Origin: Owenia fusiformis
Lineage: Eukaryota; Annelida; Polychaeta; Sabellida; Oweniidae
Direction of reading: 5' to 3'
Length of the DNA: 64,000 nucleotides
Assembly (NCBI GenBank): GCA_903813345.2
Contig: CAIIXF020000001.1
Coordinates: forward strand, 1,426,001 to 1,490,000
The notes below the pieces were generated by a model that did not search any database, had not been told where the DNA came from, and saw only the letters and a program-made list of their open reading frames with translations. The translations under genes and the position numbers were made by a program. Positions 40,701 through 57,860 of the stretch are shown here, in pieces; within the stretch, counting starts at the first letter, position 1, and each line of letters starts with the position of its first letter.

Positions 40701-43700
40701 TTGATGAAACCACTGCTTATTTCCCTTCTGGTGCTTAAGTGCCCTCTAAAACTTAGTGAACAACTTACTGGTCCTTGTTCATGGTGATAGCACGTCCCCA
40801 GTCACCTTCGAACCAAAAAGGACTGATGATTCCATGTTTCCTCATTGCCACCCAGGCAGTGCATTGTTCAGAATGCAATGGATGCTGTAACTCTTCACCA
40901 GGAGGATGTAAGCCCCAGTAGCAATTGTTCTTGGAACAAACTTGTCTATTCAGAAAGACATGTGTGTAGGAGGATCATCGACAACTTTGTTCGCCAGATT
41001 GAATTGTTCATAGAGAGGAGAGGAGAGCTGTTGTTTTTGACTCAATTGGTAGATTATTATCAAACTTTCACAACTAAATTCACATTGAATGAACTAAATA
41101 ATTATGAAATTCCAAGGCAAAATATGCAAAATTGACCGAGTTATTCAACTTTCTTACGGTCCTGTTTTTTTGGACACCCTGTAATAATAGATGACAAATA
41201 TTTTACAAAACGTTTACAGAATAATACACGAGTGTGCAAGCACCTTGGCGTAAAATAATTTATAATCCAAATTGCGATTTGTCAACAAAAAAAACATAGA
41301 CTCACATATCAGGTTAGCTCAAGTCTTAAATGTTGACTATGAAGATGAGTAAACAAAAACATCAACAATAACTATACTATGATTCCCACGAATCGATTTC
41401 TTTGACCCTCATTGATCTAAACCACACAATACGAGTCTATATATACTTGTTTGATTGCATTTTTGGTTCATCAAGCGCAGGATATTTTAGGATGCATTTG
41501 CAAATTGCATTTAAAATTCGCATGGGAATGAAAATGGGTCTTAAAATTTGACACTCGTGATTACTGGAAATAGCATGTTGTCTGAAAACAAGTATTGTAT
41601 AATGCAATCAAAAAAATCTTGCGTCCAGACAATGCCCCCCCCCCCCCCTCTATTTCACCCATGATTCATCCACTCATGGCGGGGCTTGTAGCTAGACTAT
41701 CATCATTAGTAAATTTGAATTTTTACTGGTTATAGCATTCATAACAATAGCAATTATCCTTTCAATAGCTTTAGCTTATAAAAAGAAGGGGATTCATCGT
41801 AATTCGTAATTCACGTTCATGCTTTGTTGAATACGCGTCTGTAAATTGCACCAATATGATAATCTCATGTAAAAACCTATTATGACGTGCACGGACCTGA
41901 GGACAATTCGGGAAATGCGGGGTAATCTCTTAATGCGCGTTAATCTCTGCCTTATTTGAAAAGCTAACTATGCGTTTTATATATTATTTTGAAGTATTTT
42001 TTATTCGTATTCCAGTGAAAATTTTTTTCTTTGAAAAGTTTGATGGGATCTACCAAATTTTTAAAGTTAAATGTATAAAGATCAGAATCCCACTAAAATT
42101 TCAAATTTTATTCAATGGAACGTGTGCATTTATGACGTCACAATTGCGTAACGGATCAAGTGGTCTAGATATGAAGCTTTTAAACTTTTCAAAATTATGT
42201 AAGGTTTTGAAGGCGAAGGGGACGAGCAATACACTTTAAGTTACCTTGACATTACCTTCTAATTTTGGTCTGATTCGAAAAAAAATTAACTGCACAATAT
42301 TGGCACGGTGACATTTACAAAACAATAACCGGTTTGTTTATTTCGCAAACAATATTAAAATAAGAGCTGATTTTTGAGACTTGAAAAAAAATGTGACGCA
42401 TCGATTTTTTACCACAAATTCCATGCGTATCAATTTTCACTAACGTCCCAATTGAATTTCCTGACCGTTTTTCAAAATTCGAAAACATTTAGAAATATTT
42501 CTACTTTGTGAATGTTATCATGATTAAATAAGGATAAAGCATTTTCTTCATGGGTTGACCAAACTTGAAGAAAATGTGACGCTCGTCGTTTTTGACGTTA
42601 TAAGGCCATTTGCGCCCTATACCGCTCATTGTTTGTTTTGGTATTTTGACGCTAAAATGTTACGCTAATTGTCCCCAGTTTCGTGCGACGTGTATGTAAA
42701 CTTCACGCTGGCCCACAAAAAATAGAGCCCAAATCTCAACTCATCTCAATTCTGCTATACATATTGTGTTAAACAACTAAATTAAGCAGCATTGAGACAA
42801 CATGGACATGGAAGACGACATTGGACTCTATTAATATGTTGTATTTTGTAAGATACAAGATGTCATAAAACACTGCCAGGCTGTGAAACATTTCCTTTGT
42901 TAAACACTTTCATCCGGGACTTCCATCAATTTGTAAATAAAGTAATATTTTTTTATACTTTTAAAATATAAAATAAAACGAAATGCCGCTAAGAAAAAGG
43001 AAAAAACATTTTGAGGTTTACGTTTACGTTACATCTTAAGTGCTCAGCTTAAAGCACTTTTTTTCATAATACGTAAACTGGAACGTAAAGGTTTACGTTT
43101 GCGGTTCACGTCATAAAAAATCGTCTTGCTTAACCTATGCGTGTAGCTTAACCTCTCTAGTGTCTGTCTAAATGGACGTGTTTACCTGTTTTCTGCCTCT
43201 AAACCTTTGTATCCATAAAGTAAAGAGTTCATTACGTTGTTTCATCAGGGACGTTAATATTTCAAAGGCAGGACAGGTCCATAGGTGACGAGTCCAAGGA
43301 AGAAAGGCCATGAGGTAAAATGATGGCGAAGTTGTCAACTTTTCCAAGTCCTCTATCCACCTTCGAGCAAAATTACGGTCATCCTCATATACTGGGGTAT
43401 CTTCCCCTATTATCTAAAGTATGGTAGACGTAGTTCAAAAGTATATGAAATCATAGACACATACTAATAATGGATACTTGAACAATATCGAAGCTTACTT
43501 TCAAACTGACAAATTGATGAAACATTTTTTGCTACTCACCAAACCTATAATAATCATAAACACTTGGTTCGTAATTTTCTCACTGGGGTCAAAAGCTTTT
43601 TCGTTTTCGTTTTTAAACTCCTTCACGATATTGTCAATGTGAAGATTGGACAGCCTGACTATCCTATTAATACCACCACCATGCTGATTCATCCCTCTAA

Positions 43701-44088
43701 GTCCAATTTTCTTGTATGTTTTGAATCTTGGTGTGAAATCTTGCGTGGAAACATTATGGGAAAACCATGTGTTAATGATATATGAATTATGAAATGGTCT
43801 TCCTGCAAAATCATTACCATTTGTTACCATCGCTTCATATATGCTATTGTAATCGCACAAAACAACAATTTCCTCCCCCATTACGTTCACCTTAAAAACA
43901 TCGCCATATTGTTTTGTCCATTTTTGAATTTGCCAAACTGGACCACCTTCCTTGATGACGCTTCCAATATTTCCCAAGAATGGTAATCCAGGAGGTCCTG
44001 GTAAGTCGATGCTTTTATTTTGGATTCGCTTGTATAATCTGACGGATAGACACACTAAGATTGATATTAATATAATTTGCAACCACAT
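31583..44088 (-). CDS. Cytochrome P450, CYP2-clan-like (complete, six exons)
   Basis: Joining 44088-43540, 43413-43186, 34247-34136, 32907-32642, 32294-32170 and 31793-31583 gives 1,491 nt, that is 496 residues, the usual P450 length. All junctions are GT-AG with phases 0,0,1,0,2 that match. The N-terminus has a hydrophobic microsomal anchor (LQIILISILVCLSVRLY) followed by the proline hinge DLPGPPGLPFLG. Core motifs: I-helix AGIFTT (296-301), ExxR as ETLR (353-356), PGRF (409-412) and haem loop FGAGRRVCMG with Cys438. IPHKTTRDTKISG and KGTQVWMNLYGMHHD resemble CYP1/2/17-type enzymes, so an ER-membrane mono-oxygenase is expected; substrate unknown. Oddities: the I-helix acidic residue is Phe (as Val in CYP2D-type AGMVTT), and the C-helix Trp is Phe (FKTYKK). 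Confidence 0.93.
32170..32294 (-). CDS. P450 exon 5
   Basis: Residues 386-426: VWMNLYGMHHDSRYF and the PGRF meander. Acceptor TTTTAG|GTTTGG, donor AAAAAA|GTAAAT, phase 2. Confidence 0.92.
32642..32907 (-). CDS. P450 exon 4
   Basis: Residues 297-385: I helix (GIFTTFTTISGFLIALI), J helix, K helix with ETLR. Acceptor TTCAG|GAATC, donor CAA|GTAATC. Confidence 0.92.
32988..33128. mobile_element. Foldback palindrome in P450 intron 3
   Basis: Left arm ATTATCCTATATGAGGTTCA and right arm TGAACCGACTATAGGATAAT are inverted copies continuing through GATATTGGGATTATCCC to a GGGCCGCAGGTCCC centre. Nearby GTATGGGATAAA (33522) is the inverse of TTTATCCCATAC (33133), so a larger structure is possible. Confidence 0.75.
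33414..33471. repeat. Repeated TATATCTGCCCGC dyad
   Basis: GCGGGCAGATATA and TATATCTGCCCGC form a near-perfect palindrome at 33412-33440, and a third TATATCTGCCCGC follows at 33459. It lies in P450 intron 3. Confidence 0.6.
34136..34247 (-). CDS. P450 exon 3
   Basis: Residues 260-296 (ESERYERCILGELLRAED... to SFNA), leading into the I helix. Acceptor ATAG|GAATCAG, donor GCAG|GTACAG, leaving phase 1. It is separated from exon 2 by an 8.9-kb intron filled with repeats. Confidence 0.88.
35420..36690. other. Interior of IR2, left part
   Basis: AT-rich, no protein-like frame. 36170-36300 matches 19555-19720. Otherwise nothing is recognised. Confidence 0.4.
36697..37126 (-). mobile_element. 430-bp TIR element, copy 2
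   Basis: Inverted copy of the element at 27409-27838, with ATGCGAGTAG and CTACTCGCAT at the ends and shared internal phrases (AAATAATCTTGATTTA, TCTAGAAATGTGGTTTT, CACAAAAAGTGAAATAT). Confidence 0.75.
37130..39490. other. Interior of IR2, right part
   Basis: No gene or known repeat could be supported in this AT-rich stretch. Confidence 0.4.
40230..41181 (-). mobile_element. Dead mariner-like transposon
   Basis: The terminal inverted repeats are about 53 bp: CGGGGTGTCCAAAAAAACAG at the left, the complement of CTGTTTTTTTGGACACCCTG at the right. They are flanked by TA on both sides (40228-40229 and 41182-41183). The minus strand retains scattered transposase remnants: ISPFWFEGDWGRAIT (about 40820), ANDMLKWFRQCFGGQLISCRT (about 40660, split by changes) and HSPDLNPP (about 40585), the last being part of the catalytic-region signature of mariner-type DDE transposases. 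Many stops and shifts make it non-functional. Located in P450 intron 2, just outside IR2. Confidence 0.88.
41190..43180. other. Rest of P450 intron 2
   Basis: No exon with matching phase or repeat of note was found. A C-run (41636-41648) and a dyad-rich TTTACGTT patch (43015-43105) are visible. Confidence 0.4.
43186..43413 (-). CDS. P450 exon 2
   Basis: Residues 184-259 (IIGEDTPVYEDDRNFARRW through FRGRKQ). Acceptor TTTAG|ATA, donor CAG|GTAAAC, phase 0 at both ends. It covers the F-G region including the FLPWTRHLW stretch typical of CYP2-clan enzymes. Confidence 0.9.
43540..44088 (-). CDS. P450 exon 1
   Basis: Residues 1-183: membrane anchor, proline hinge, helices A-F. It starts at the only ATG preceding the anchor (AAGATGTGG context) and ends at TTG|GTGAGT. 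Confidence 0.92.
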
Positions 44089-44395
44089 CTTGTACTGTGT
44101 GCATTAACTATTGCTTAGAAGCGGTCTTGAAGTCACGAAGTCGAAATAAAGTATAAATCGCGCATGCGTTCACATGTGGAAAACAAAAAAAACATCGACT
44201 AGCGTCGTCGACAAGTCAAGCAGGTGTGTTGATATTAAACGTATACATAACCACGTAAGTTTTATTCAGTTATTAAACTTGCGGATACTTTGTAGCTCGA
44301 GAATATCTACTTGATCAGTGTATATAAAGCAAATGGGAATGTTGTTTGTACACGATGAAAACCTCGTTGGCCTTTGATTGATAAACAACTAATCT

Positions 44396-46127
44396 CACGG
44401 TGTTATAGCATGACAGATACGCCACCTCTGAAAACGAGGTTAGTCGTATACGATCACTGATTTATCCAATAAAATGGCCACGATGAAACAGAAAGCTAAG
44501 GTAGGTGCATTATGTTCTACTACTGCGTATCAATAAAAGCATGAAAGATTTATGTAAGCGTCGCATTCGGGGATGCATTCAGTAATGTTTATTTTGATCG
44601 TAGTCTTTGCAAATCGACGCCCATGGATAACATGAAATAAGCGAAAAACTGTCGAGTTTGAAATTCAAAACTTCATAAAATTTAGTAATTTGTTTCTTTT
44701 CTTCGTTAGGACATGCTCTACATTGCGCAACAACCTTGGTGTATATAAATGTAACCTACATACGATCATACAAAGCCAATTAAGCATTGTAAACCACTTA
44801 ATATGTTCTACTCAAGCCATAATAATGTATTTTGAATTTGCGGATACGCCAAAAATTGATAGACAGTTACGCGAACCTCGTTCATATATGTAAAACCGAA
44901 TCATTTCATATCGCTTGTGATCCAAAATTGAAATGTTTTTCAACCGGATTTGAGTTTTGTAAGCTATAATAGATGAAATCGTATTATTACCACCTTGCAG
45001 GGCCTGTTCTAGGGGTTTTAGTACTAGTTGAGAAGGCATTTAAATTGCTATATTGACGTGAGCAATATTGTGTCGGGCGTTAATGACTTTAGTCGGGCAA
45101 TAATGATATTATTCGCCCGGCTATGTTTCCCGGGAAAAGTGATATCGTTCAGTGCGTAAGATTTTCTATTTCAAATTTGCTATTTCAGCCCTGGGCATTA
45201 ACGGTGGTAATAATGGTAATAACGTCATTTCTGCGGGCAAAATAGTGAAATATTGGACCTTGGGCCTGCGGCCCTTGGTCCAATATTTCATATTGCCCGC
45301 AGAAATGACGTTATTGTACTATTATGAAGATGGTGACATAAACAGCTGAATATGATTTGTAATAATGGTAATGTCTAATGTCACTTATGACATCATCAAT
45401 TAATTTGGAGTTGTTTTCTTCCGTCGCCTGTTCGTTGTTACTAATTTCTTCCTTTGCCTCTTCATTACAATCATTTTCACTTTCATTGGCTTTCGCTATT
45501 TTTTCCTTGCCCTATAGAGGCTCAAGCAAGAGCGTCTCTTGCGAGTCCTGAAAACAAATATAGGCAGTTCACACATAGAGAGCTATCCATCTAGGGACCT
45601 TGACTTGACAGGAACTTGCATGTAACCGTCCGCTAACATCTAATGTAAAACTAATACAATGCGTTGCTGTCCATAAAAAAGCATGCAATACATACGTATC
45701 TGTCTAACGACCTTGCGATTGAAACCTTATTATCTACAATATTTACCACATTTCTGTTCTGCATTTGTCATTTTATGGCTTGTTTATGCACAGTTTACGT
45801 ACAGTTAGTATTTTGAGTGGCTCTGAGGCACATATACTGAGAAAACACGAAAAAGGACTAAAAATTATGAACTTCGAAATCTCAGCTGGGTAGGTTTACA
45901 GCTTATATTCTGCTTCTTGTAGACCACACGACAGATTTAACTCAATCTTTAAAACCATTCACATATGCATCACCGAATGGAACTAGTTGAAAAGGAAAGC
46001 TTATCTGTGAATCTTGCCTACAGGCGAAAAAGAGGACATGCTGTCTTTCCCGTCCGCCATTTTTTGTTATCGTTACCGCATAATTTGGCCAATTGCCTTG
46101 TCGTATCTGTCATGCTATAACACCGTG
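44396..46127 (+). mobile_element. Transib-like non-autonomous element A
   Basis: Perfect terminal inverted repeats of 26 bp begin CACGGTGTTATAGCATGAC at both ends. The 5-bp direct repeat AATCT flanks the element (44391-44395 and 46128-46132). Length 1,732 bp. The CACnnTG terminal heptamer with 5-bp duplication is the hallmark of Transib/RAG-like transposons. No transposase frame remains, so superfamily assignment is inference. It lies about 300 bp upstream of the P450 start codon and contains a nested palindromic MITE (45218-45315). Confidence 0.8.
45218..45315. mobile_element. Palindromic MITE, copy 1 (within element A)
   Basis: AATAACGTCATTTCTGCGGG and its complement form the ends of a near-perfect 98-bp palindrome centred on GGGCCTGCGGCCC. 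A shorter relative lies at 50770-50855. Flanking sequence is also shared: GTTCTAGGGGTTTTAGTACTA (45007) has a counterpart, inverted, near 51000. The palindrome is therefore probably the core of a larger repeat. Confidence 0.8.
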
Positions 46128-46171
46128 AATCTACTAGAACTAATGATCGTTTCTAGCGTGCAAACTATTAC

Positions 46172-47911
46172 CACTATGCATTACCATGACGGTTACGTCA
46201 AGGCGATTTGCAAGATTTTGCGGTAACGATAACGGATGGGAAAGACAGCATGTCCTCTTTCTCGCATGTAGGCAAGATTCACAGGTAAGATTTCCTTTTA
46301 AACTAGTTCCATTTGGTGACGTATATATGGATGGTTATAAACTGAGGCCCGGGTATACTGTCATTAATAAGCCGTGTGGTCTACAAGAAGCAGAATATAA
46401 GCTGTAAACCTACAGACTGAGATATCCAATTTTTAGTTCATTCTCGTGTTTTCTCAGTATATGTGCCTCAGAGCCACTCAAAATACTAACTGTACATAAA
46501 CTGTGTATAAACAACCCATAAAATGACAAACCCAGACCAGGAATGTGGTGCATATTTACGGTGTTATAGCATGACGGTTACGGCAAGGCGATTTGCAAAA
46601 TTTTGCGGTAACAATAACAAAAAATGGCGGATGGGAAAGACAGCATGTCCTATTTCTCGCTTGTAGACAAGATTCACAGATAAGGTTTAAACGCAATATT
46701 GTTAGACGACTACGTATGAATTCTATGGACGGTAACGTATTGTATTAGTTATTAATTTCAAACTCAACAGTTTTTCGCTTATTTCATGTTATCCCCAGGC
46801 ATCAATTTGCAAAGACTACGTTCAAAATATACATTACTAAATGTATCACCGAATGCGATGCTTACATAAATCGTTCATCCTTTCATTGATACACAGTAGT
46901 AGAAAATAATGCATTAACCTTAGTTTTCTGTTCCATCGCGGCCATTTTTCAGAGGTGGTGTAACCGTCATGCTATAGCAGGGTGATGTTGTTAATAATAA
47001 AGTTTCAATCGCAAGGTCGTTAGACGACTACGTATGAATTACATGATTTTGTTATGGACGGTAACGTATTGTATTAGTTGTACATTAGCTTTAGCGGACG
47101 GTTACGTGCATGTGCACATATCTCCATGTTATTGTAATAACGGGTAACAAATGGAATATTGAATTACCTATATTTATTTTTCAATTAGGTTGAACAATAT
47201 CTAGTAATATTTCAATTTTGGATCACAAACGATATGAAATGAATCGGGGTTTCATATATGAACGAGGTTCGCGTAACCGTCTATCAATGATTTACGTTAC
47301 CGCAAATTCAAAATACATTATTATCGGTTAAGTAGAACATATTAGGTGGTTTCCAATGCTTAATTGACTTTTAATGATTGTATGTAGGTTATATTTATAT
47401 ACATCAAAGTTGCAGAAGATGTGAGTAGCTCCCATAATTCTTTCATATTCTATCGTATTCGGGGATTCCCCATTACGTCATCTCCCGCATCGTCTCCAAT
47501 CTAATTGTAGGATGCGATCACGTGAACATATCGTGGAAATGGCGTTAACATCAGTTCAACATCATCATTTTAAACCTACGGTAATACTATTGAAGTTACT
47601 CGATCCAAACTTGAAGAGAATACTCATAAAACTACAGCGAACATTGGGAGATTCAGTTCAATGGCAAATGAGACCTGTTTATAAAATTTGTTTTCGAACG
47701 TTCCAATATGATAGGTCATCTTTGGGAAATCCCCCCCCCCCTTGCCAAAGTTGGTAGGCAATGTAGACCATGCACTGACGAGGAAAATAAACAAATTACT
47801 AAATTTTATGTAGTTTTGAATTCCTAACTCGATAGTTTTTCGCTTATTTCATGTTATTCCCGGGCATCAATTTGCAAAGACTACGTTCAACCGTCATGGT
47901 AATACATGGTG
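46172..47911 (-). mobile_element. Transib-like non-autonomous element B
   Basis: The ends are CACTATGCATTACCATGACG and, inverted, CACCATGTATTACCATGACG. ATTAC is directly repeated on both sides (46167-46171 and 47912-47916). Its interior is the reverse complement of element A over several blocks (for example 46265-46540 against 45770-46030, and 47160-47400 against 44710-44960). It is interrupted by element C. Orientation is given relative to A. Confidence 0.8.
46557..46984 (-). mobile_element. Transib-like element C, nested in B
   Basis: Ends TACGGTGTTATAGCATGACG and, inverted, CACCCTGCTATAGCATGACG. Flanks are ATATT (46552-46556) and ATGTT (46985-46989), a 5-bp duplication with one change. 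Removing C and one flank restores a sequence collinear with element A at 45721-45765. Length 428 bp, an internally deleted relative of A. Confidence 0.8.
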
Positions 47912-48017
47912 ATTACACAGTAGGTCAACGATTTTTTGTGTGTATTTTTGAGTTGGATAGAATAAATAACTCTAAAACATATTCATATTCAATCAATTTG
48001 CTACTAAAGGATGCATA

Positions 48018-56604: not shown

Positions 56605-57860
56605 TTGCTGGTACGATCCCGTGGCAATACGTAGGTACAATCCTGTGGCAATAAGTAGGTACAATCTTGTGGCAATTAGAAGGTACAAACCTACGGCAGC
56701 AAGTAGGTATAATCTTGTGGCAATAAGGAGGTACAAACCTATGACAATAAGAAGGTACAAACCAGTAAGTAGACAGTACGTAGATAAAATCTAAGAAGGT
56801 AATAAGAAGGAGAAGAAGCAATAAGAAGGTACAAACCTGTGGCAGTAAGTAGGAACAATCCCCTGGCAGTAAGTAGATACAATGTTGTGGCAGTAAGTTG
56901 GTACAAACCTGTGGCAATAAGTAGGTACAATCCTGTGGCTATACGTAGGTACAATCCTGTGGCTATACATAGGTACAATTCCTGTGGCTATACGTAGGTA
57001 CAATCCTGTGGCTATTCGTAGTCACAATCCTGTGGCTATACGTAGGTACAATTCTGTGGCTATACGTAGGTACAATCCTGTGGCAATAAGTAGGTACAAT
57101 CATGTGGCTATACGTAGGTACAATCCTGTGGCTATACGTAGGTACAATCTTGTGGCTATTCGTAGGTACAATCCTGTGACTATACGTAGGTACAATCCTG
57201 TGGCTATACGTAGGTTCAATCCTGTGGCTATACGTAGGTACAATCCTGTGGCTATACGTAGGTACAATTCTGTGGCAATAAGTAGGTACAATCCTGTGGC
57301 TATACGTAGGTACAATCCTGTGGCTATACGTAGGTACAATGCTGTGTCTATACGTAGGTACACTCCTGTGGCTATACGTAGGTACAATCCTGTGGCCAGA
57401 CGTAGGTACAATCCTTTGGCTATACGTAGGTACAATCCTGTGGCTATTCGTAGGTACAATCCTGTGGCTATACGTAGGTACAATCCTGTGGCTATACGTA
57501 GGTACAATGCTGTGGCTATACGTAGGTACAATCTTGTGGCTATTCGTAGGTACAATCCTGTGACTTTACGTAGGTACAATCCTATGGCAATAAGTAGGTA
57601 CAATCCTGTAGCTATACGTAGGTACACTCCTGTGGCAATTAGAAGGTACACTTATGACTGTAAGTAGGTACAGCCATGAGGCAGTAAGTAGGTACAATCC
57701 TGTGGCAGGAAGTAGGTAAATATTATGTGGCCGTAAGTAGGTACAACCCTGTGGCAATAAGTAGGTACAAACCTGTGGTAATAAGTAGGTACAAACCTGT
57801 GGCAATAAGTAGGTACAATCTTGTGGCAATAAGAAGGTACAATTCTACGGCAATTAATAA
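56605..57860 (+). repeat. 24-bp minisatellite
   Basis: About 50 tandem copies of a unit like GTAGGTACAATCCTGTGGCTATAC, with many single-base variants and scattered length variants at the edges. Since 24 is divisible by three, several frames stay open: plus strand 227 codons of VAIRRYNP repeats (56984-57667), minus strand 183 codons (57651-57100). No splice context or start context supports expression. Confidence 0.92.

What the first reader, a model, noticed from the sequence alone, without database searches (positions are those of the whole stretch)
44396..47911. Trio of Transib/RAG-like elements with CACnnTG ends and 5-bp target duplications
Seen: three related elements. A starts and ends with CACGGTG and is flanked by AATCT. 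B has CACTATG and CACCATG ends and is flanked by ATTAC. C has TACGGTG and CACCCTG ends and is flanked by ATATT/ATGTT. Known: Transib transposons, the superfamily from which RAG1 and V(D)J recombination derive, and ProtoRAG-type elements make 5-bp duplications and end in CACnnTG heptamers like recombination signals. Inference: these are non-autonomous Transib or RAG-like elements, with A and B in opposite orientations head to tail. The inner sequence GCATGAC(G/A)G(T/A)TACG is not a known RSS nonamer. A previously undescribed family is possible.
Basis: partly seen in the sequence, partly recalled or inferred. Interest (0 to 1): 0.82.

Follow-up and report, generated by a model that had tools for sequence, protein, structure and literature searches.

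The report
Non-autonomous transposons with RAG-like ends
Three copies of a common gene-less 'jumping DNA' family sit here; their ends and 5-base target duplications look like those of the transposons from which the antibody-gene recombinase evolved, but the enzyme that moves them was not found.

Summary
A (44396-46127, duplication AATCT), B (46172-47911, ATTAC) and C (46557-46984, ATATT/ATGTT) are related inverted-repeat elements with CACnnTG ends (TACGGTG at C's left end). C is nested inside B. The family is large: 422 + 425 near-exact 26-bp ends in the 498-Mb host genome, none for the reversed pattern. In 44 of 44 copies chosen without regard to the duplication it is exactly 5 bp. A is 0.12% from another copy, so movement was recent. 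No transposase was seen in the copies read: they look like non-autonomous cut-and-paste elements moved in trans. Ends plus 5-bp duplication match Transib/RAG best. Membership is not shown: RAG1 and HzTransib queries found no such gene (searches can miss), and the target, Y|ATNAT|R, is AT-rich whereas Transib, ProtoRAG and RAG favour G+C. The RAG1-related transposases found are mainly Chapaev-like, with 4-bp duplications and other ends. Verdict: a real, recently active family, not found described in my paper searches, Transib-like in ends; its enzyme is unknown.

The parts
44391..44395 (.). 5-bp target duplication AATCT, left of A
   Evidence: repeated at 46128-46132
44396..46127 (-). Element A, 1732 bp, non-autonomous; R-end at left, L-end at right; 26-bp inverted repeats CACGGTGTTATAGCATGACAGATACG
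   Evidence: 22 full-length matches, this one included (40 candidates scored); 0.12% from L021
46128..46132 (.). 5-bp target duplication AATCT, right of A
46167..46171 (.). 5-bp target duplication ATTAC, left of B
46172..47911 (+). Element B, 1740 bp including nested C; L-end CACTATGCATTACCATGACGGTTACG at left; right end CACCATGTATTACCATGACGGTT only (R-type subterminal sequence missing)
   Evidence: (I16)
46557..46984 (+). Element C, 428 bp, nested in B; ends TACGGTG... and CACCCTG...; 5-bp duplication ATATT/ATGTT
   Evidence: empty site in A copies
47912..47916 (.). 5-bp target duplication ATTAC, right of B

Best explanation
A, B and C are members of one family of non-autonomous DNA transposons (0.4-1.75 kb when uninterrupted). 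Shown: 26-bp terminal inverted repeats with CACnnTG tips, exactly 5-bp target duplications, high copy number, nested insertion, recent movement, no transposase seen in the copies read. Inferred: a DDE transposase made elsewhere binds the 26-bp ends (heptamer CACnnTG plus the block CATGACRGNTACG), cuts the element out beside CAC, and joins it 5 bp staggered into a palindromic AT-rich target (Y|ATNAT|R); host repair fills the gaps and leaves the duplication. The most likely enzyme is of the Transib/RAG type, because that combination of ends and duplication is otherwise unknown to me, but my searches of this assembly did not find it.
For: 5-bp duplication exact in 44 of 44 copies and in 36 of 36 distinct target sites; 4-, 6-, 7- and 8-bp repeats 0 of 36. 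Ends: 422 + 425 genome matches with up to 2 mismatches against 0 + 0 for the reversed pattern. Bases 4-5 of the tip vary in 95 further matches (CACCCTG, CACTCTG, CACTATG, CACAGTG and others; that pattern fixed CAC and TG, so only the variation is informative); B and C, found without a pattern, show CACTATG, CACCATG, CACCCTG and TACGGTG. Empty site of C. Recent movement: window A differs from L021 at 0.12% of sites; median pairwise difference of 21 copies 1.4%. Transib in flies: 5-bp duplication in 532 of 533 hopper sites (PMC3276498, passages). Protostome and deuterostome RAG-like and Transib ends begin CAC with 5-bp duplications (PMC7204232, section 6 read).
Against: No Transib or RAG1-like gene found: Pfam RAG1 0 matches (its controls also silent, so uninformative); RAG1 catalytic region, best E 0.51, all four hits in one other element family; Transib motif, one hit read as chance; HzTransib residues 271-460, none (no positive control for that query). 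Target is AT-rich (79% against 65% in flanks; CANTG 0 of 36), whereas fly Transib prefers CCANTGG and ProtoRAG, Transib and RAG are said to be G+C-biased (PMC8289069, passages). All 108 exact A-type ends in the genome were listed; they form 49 pairs, and the long pairs that I read hold no transposase of their own that I could see. One locus with two ends, L092, shows no 5-bp repeat; its right tip is degraded.
Confidence: 0.55

Rival explanations
1. The family is moved by another CMCT-type enzyme (a relative of EnSpm, Mirage, Chapaev, Plavaka, ESTA or Lanisha), or by an undescribed lineage, that makes 5-bp duplications at AT-rich sites. It would work like Transib without being one.
For: CMCT lineages mostly end in CA..TG and make 2-5 bp duplications (PMC12730594, passages). 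This genome holds several divergent RAG1-related, Chapaev-like transposases with CAC ends and no Transib was found. The target motif differs from Transib.
Against: Each of the five such families whose ends I could place has a 4-bp duplication (L104, L106, L108, L113, L114) and different ends; for L105 and L107 no ends were placed. None of 31 RAG1-like/Chapaev places (the 43 matches less 12 nearby pieces) lies within 12 kb of 199 listed places of the family; those are only part of the family.
Confidence: 0.3
2. The family belongs to hAT5, hAT transposons with 5-bp duplications. The T at position 2 and A at the next-to-last position of the duplication would then parallel the nTnnnnAn of 8-bp hAT targets.
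For: hAT families with 5-bp duplications are named hAT5 in PMC12730594 (passages). hobo's earlier published target is NTNNNNAN. Here T at 2 and A at 4 each occur in 45 of 72 symmetrised positions. hAT dimerisation domains are common: 138 matches.
Against: Both T2 and A4 occur in only 14 of 36 sites. The third base of the ends is C, not a purine as in the usual hAT end (recalled, no call). None of 138 hAT matches lies within 8 kb of 199 listed family places; that list is only part of the family.
Confidence: 0.1
3. The repeats are chance or assembly artefact.
For: None found.
Against: Shuffles give 0 matches; 847 near-exact ends in the genome against 0; 44 of 44 exact duplications.
Confidence: 0.01

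Closest known systems
Transib superfamily (HzTransib, Drosophila hopper and transib2)
   Same: CAC-tipped heptamer-like ends, 5-bp duplications, non-autonomous copies known (Transib MITEs are counted in Helicoverpa, PMC9033116, passages). I recall, from no call, that HzTransib also begins CACGGTG.
   Different: No Transib transposase found in this genome; target Y|ATNAT|R, not CCANTGG; the 26-bp end has its own inner block CATGACRGNTACG.
RAG-like transposons / ProtoRAG
   Same: CACTATG is the ProtoRAG tip (PMC8289069, passages) and also B's left tip; 5-bp duplications.
   Different: No RAG1L found; protostome consensus CACTWMCAAACKTYKBB with AAA at 8-10 does not fit CACGGTGTTATAGCATGAC.
Chapaev (CMCT clade)
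   Same: CAC ends; RAG1-related transposase; present in this genome.
   Different: 4-bp duplications in the five families whose ends I could place; other ends.
hAT5
   Same: 5-bp duplication.
   Different: End sequence (recalled rule) and target pattern fit poorly; no hAT gene within 8 kb of any listed copy.

Membership tests
Non-autonomous TIR transposon (MITE-like) | Terminal inverted repeats, constant-length target duplication, many copies, no transposase gene | tested here: met
   no transposase frame seen by eye; three representative frames have no Pfam domain
Transib | Ends beginning CAC, heptamer-like CACnnTG | tested here: met
Transib | 5-bp target duplication | tested here: met
   44 of 44 copies, 36 of 36 distinct sites
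Transib | Transib-type DDE transposase encoded by the family's autonomous copy | tested here: inconclusive
   No autonomous copy found; HzTransib fragment and motif queries found none; no positive control for these queries; searches of G000 can miss matches
Transib | G+C-biased target (typical, not strictly defining) | tested here: not met
   A+T 142 of 180 positions of the duplication against 65% in flanks, p 3e-5; CANTG 0 of 36
RAG-like transposon / ProtoRAG | RAG1L (with RAG2L) gene pair between the ends | tested here: inconclusive
   RAG1 query: best E 0.51, to another element family; RAG2L not searched
RAG-like transposon (protostome) | End consensus CACTWMCAAACKTYKBB, AAA at positions 8-10 | tested here: not met
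   Positions 8-10 are mostly T-T-A here (155, 166 and 167 of 174 matches); consensus from PMC7204232
Chapaev | 4-bp target duplication | tested here: not met
   4-bp repeat 0 of 36 sites; Chapaev-like families of this genome show 4 bp
hAT5 | 5-bp target duplication | tested here: met
hAT5 | hAT transposase between the ends | tested here: inconclusive
   0 of 138 hAT matches within 8 kb of 199 listed places; many family places on C3-C12 were not listed

The most novel reading that the evidence does not exclude
The family is served by an undescribed RAG/Transib-clade (or other CMCT) transposase that keeps the CACnnTG tip and 5-bp stagger but uses a different inner binding block and an AT-rich palindromic target, in an animal genome where searches found no ordinary Transib or RAG1L gene.
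Probability: 0.25. Interest if true: 0.6.

Novelty: new member of a known kind. Interest (0 to 1): 0.36.

Why it matters
If the enzyme were found and proved RAG/Transib-related, it would add a natural RAG-type end and target code outside the known ones and show which parts of the recombination signal are fixed (CAC..TG, 5-bp stagger) and which drift. If it proves to be another enzyme, it warns that CACnnTG plus 5 bp alone does not identify Transib. As it stands it is a good case of an abundant, recently active non-autonomous family without a visible source.

Tried and rejected
Autonomous copy: I read inward from 34 termini on C1 and C2 that I took as unpaired (33 loci, plus two extensions; several proved to have a partner) and from 22 of the 95 variant ends (20 loci). 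The longest open frame in L001-L075, L084-L103 and L116-L118 was 197 aa, and none of the frames listed looked like a transposase by eye; only three representative frames of the family were put to Pfam (none). All 108 exact A-type ends of the genome form 49 pairs with 10 left over. Of the ten longest pairs, seven were read whole or in part: L012 (3.0 kb), L013 (3.9), L116 (5.4), L117 (2.8), L118 (2.8), L119 (inner part of 11.6 kb), L120 (inner part of 10.6 kb). I read all seven as A copies with other repeats inserted (L119 holds a Gypsy-like frame of 1331 aa, L120 a LINE-like frame of 914 aa, by eye). Not read: C3:26992407-27007332 (14.9 kb), C12:9410094-9413705 (3.6 kb), and the 2.6-kb pair at C8:8409597 except its 1-kb insert (L112).

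Other leads: long inserts at A position 780 in two copies (L110, L111) have no frame of 120 aa. The 5.4-kb RAG1-like element (L080, L081) has other ends. The Transib-motif hit L083 is read as chance. Viral contigs hold no exact match to the end pattern. tblastn of seven Chapaev-like or RAG1-like frames and the HzTransib fragment against 98 family loci plus A and B gave no hit at E 1, while the Chapaev-like frames found each other; the HzTransib fragment hit nothing there either. Paper searches for the end sequence or for a 5-bp Transib MITE in such an animal (listings only) showed nothing like it; Repbase could not be searched.

Limits: the pairing kept only pairs with at most one mismatch in the duplication (67 records, 52 sites, 47 exact) and left out 34 ends. 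Two loci among these hold two ends: L057 has an exact ATAAG repeat once a 2-base deletion in its end is allowed, L092 has no repeat and a degraded tip. I therefore rest, where copies were chosen by position: 20 of the 32 convergent pairs that I counted in the list, 20 of the 21 other full-length hits, L116-L118, and A. Eight of the 44 share one site inside another repeat, and two share another. End-position counts come from matches chosen with a similar pattern and overstate conservation. The 4-bp duplications of L104, L106 and L113 rest on single copies whose ends I chose by searching for CAC ends with a 3-6-bp repeat; those of L108/L109 and L114/L115 rest on two copies each.

Full report
WHAT IS THERE. 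Reading the window confirms A at 44396-46127 between AATCT copies, B at 46172-47911 between ATTAC copies, and C at 46557-46984 between ATATT and ATGTT. A fuzzy search for the end pattern finds 5 of the 6 ends in the window and none in 100 shuffles; the sixth, B's right end, is a 23-bp inverted match to its left end (I16). C lies inside B. A query joining B's halves with one ATATT aligns through the joint to many A copies, so C inserted into B and duplicated ATATT.

THE FAMILY. The window lies in a 498-Mb genome of 525 contigs. The eleven of C1-C12 whose lengths I saw are 32 to 62 Mb. That fits the 505.8 Mb and 12 chromosomes reported for the annelid Owenia fusiformis (PMC9977687, passages), but the host was not established. 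A has 22 full-length matches, this one included, at 93-100% identity (only 40 candidates were scored). The 26-bp end with up to 2 mismatches occurs 422 + 425 times, and the reversed control 0 + 0. A pattern with other bases at position 4 (CACCCTG, CACTCTG, CACCATG, CACTATG, CACAGTG and others) has 95 matches, some already counted. Lengths run from 428 bp (C) through about 600, 800, 1000 and 1265 to about 1740 bp. Behind the shared 26 bp the two ends differ (L-end and R-end).

TARGET DUPLICATION. In 44 copies chosen by position, 44 have an exact 5-bp direct repeat. They reduce to 36 distinct sites, all exact, and 0 of 36 fit 4, 6, 7 or 8 bp. In a wider set that includes B, C and older copies, with at most one mismatch allowed, 47 of 52 distinct sites are exact; one locus with two ends, L092, has no repeat and a degraded tip. 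The duplication is 79% A+T against 65% in the flanks (p 3e-5, treating positions as independent). The symmetrised motif is Y|ATNAT|R, with G at the first outside base in only 2 of 72. Fly Transib elements prefer CCANTGG (PMC3276498, passages), and ProtoRAG, Transib and RAG are described as G+C-biased (PMC8289069, passages); 0 of 36 sites here are CANTG.

AGE. Window A differs from L021 at 0.12% and from L022 at 0.17% of sites; the 21 copies have a median pairwise difference of 1.4% and a maximum of 3.7%. B and C look older: their blocks match A at about 80-94%.

NO ENZYME FOUND. No copy read shows a transposase frame by eye; three representative frames have no Pfam domain. All 108 exact A-type ends were listed: 49 pairs, ten of them from 2.6 to 14.9 kb. 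Seven of those ten were read whole or in part, and I read them as A copies with nested insertions; three were not, or only at the insert (see Tried and rejected). A 354-aa RAG1 query found only four weak places, all in one other element family. A Transib motif that retrieves HzTransib from PDB at 8e-16, used in a mixed form, found in the genome only a hit that I read as chance. HzTransib residues 271-460 (read) found nothing. These are negative searches of a tool that can miss matches. The sensitivity check is indirect: the same tool found Chapaev-like relatives of the L077 protein at 26-44% identity.

WHAT RAG1 RELATIVES THE GENOME HAS. The RAG1 query led to a multi-copy 5.4-kb element (L080, L081) coding a frame of 726-729 aa, with a weak match to Pfam RAG1 (E 0.0013, below cut-off) and to RAG1 chains in PDB in two stretches (best E 4e-4; the entry named mouse RAG1 1.6e-3; HzTransib not matched). 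With that protein I found 43 matches, including long frames from several divergent families. One of these, L108's main frame, has no PDB match at E 10 and matches Pfam DUF1280 instead. Aligned, eight proteins from eight of these loci keep two aspartates, a CxxC and a histidine (D198, D278, C297, C300 and H357 of L077). CMCT transposases, Transib and RAG1 included, are described as sharing C(2)C and H(3-4)H motifs (PMC12730594, passages); I did not verify the histidine pair. Five families have CAC ends that I could place, with 4-bp duplications (L104, L106, L108, L113, L114; L108 and its 98.9% copy L109 at different sites), which I read as Chapaev; L105 and L107 could not be placed. None of 31 such places lies within 12 kb of 199 listed places of the present family.

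HOW IT MOST LIKELY WORKS. Shown: ends, 5-bp duplication, nesting, recent movement, no gene seen in the copies read. Inferred: a transposase supplied in trans recognises the 26-bp ends, cuts at CAC, and inserts with a 5-bp stagger into a palindromic AT-rich site. Among families known to me Transib/RAG fits the ends and the stagger best (0.55). Another CMCT or unknown lineage (0.3) and hAT5 (0.1) remain. I do not file the family under Transib: the defining enzyme was not found, and its usual target bias was tested and not met.

NOVELTY. It is a new member of a known kind (non-autonomous elements with TIRs). I found no description in the paper searches (listings seen), and could not search Repbase. 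The open and more interesting question is the missing enzyme.

Noticed in passing
L080:1260-6625 (G000 C1:15857759-15863124), L081: 5.4-kb multi-copy element with ends CATATCGAGATTTTAGCGTC, no evident target duplication in two copies, coding a frame of 726-729 aa with weak RAG1 matches.
   Followed up: partly
L104, L106, L108/L109, L113, L114/L115: At least five divergent Chapaev-like families, 3.8-4.5 kb, CAC ends, 4-bp duplications, with a first frame carrying a CRxCG...HPxxxCxxCY zinc-like region that resembles RAG1's N-terminus (resemblance recalled; Pfam gives only weak zf-AD).
   Followed up: partly
L001, L004, L007, L009, L015, L016, L017, L020, L042, L044, L053, L054, L066, L069: These loci share one target site (TGGTCCCCTATT / CTATTGACTATT): a family member inserted in another dispersed repeat that seems to have multiplied with it.
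   Followed up: no
window 45218-45315: Foldback sequence inside A (26-bp and 21-bp inverted repeats) where many A copies break or carry inserts (A positions about 780-880).
   Followed up: partly
window 43501-44088 (-): N-terminal cytochrome P450 exon (Pfam p450 E 2.5e-16) starts about 307 bp from A, so A lies just upstream of a P450 gene, as HzTransib does at CYP6B8 (PMC1852546, passages).
   Followed up: no
L108 ends versus L091:588-1287: L091 carries the empty site of the Chapaev-like element L108: flank matches overlap by 4 bp, which supports its 4-bp duplication.
   Followed up: yes
window 56984-57667: Open frames on both strands made of a repeated unit (VAIRRYNP...), a minisatellite that reads through.
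   Followed up: no
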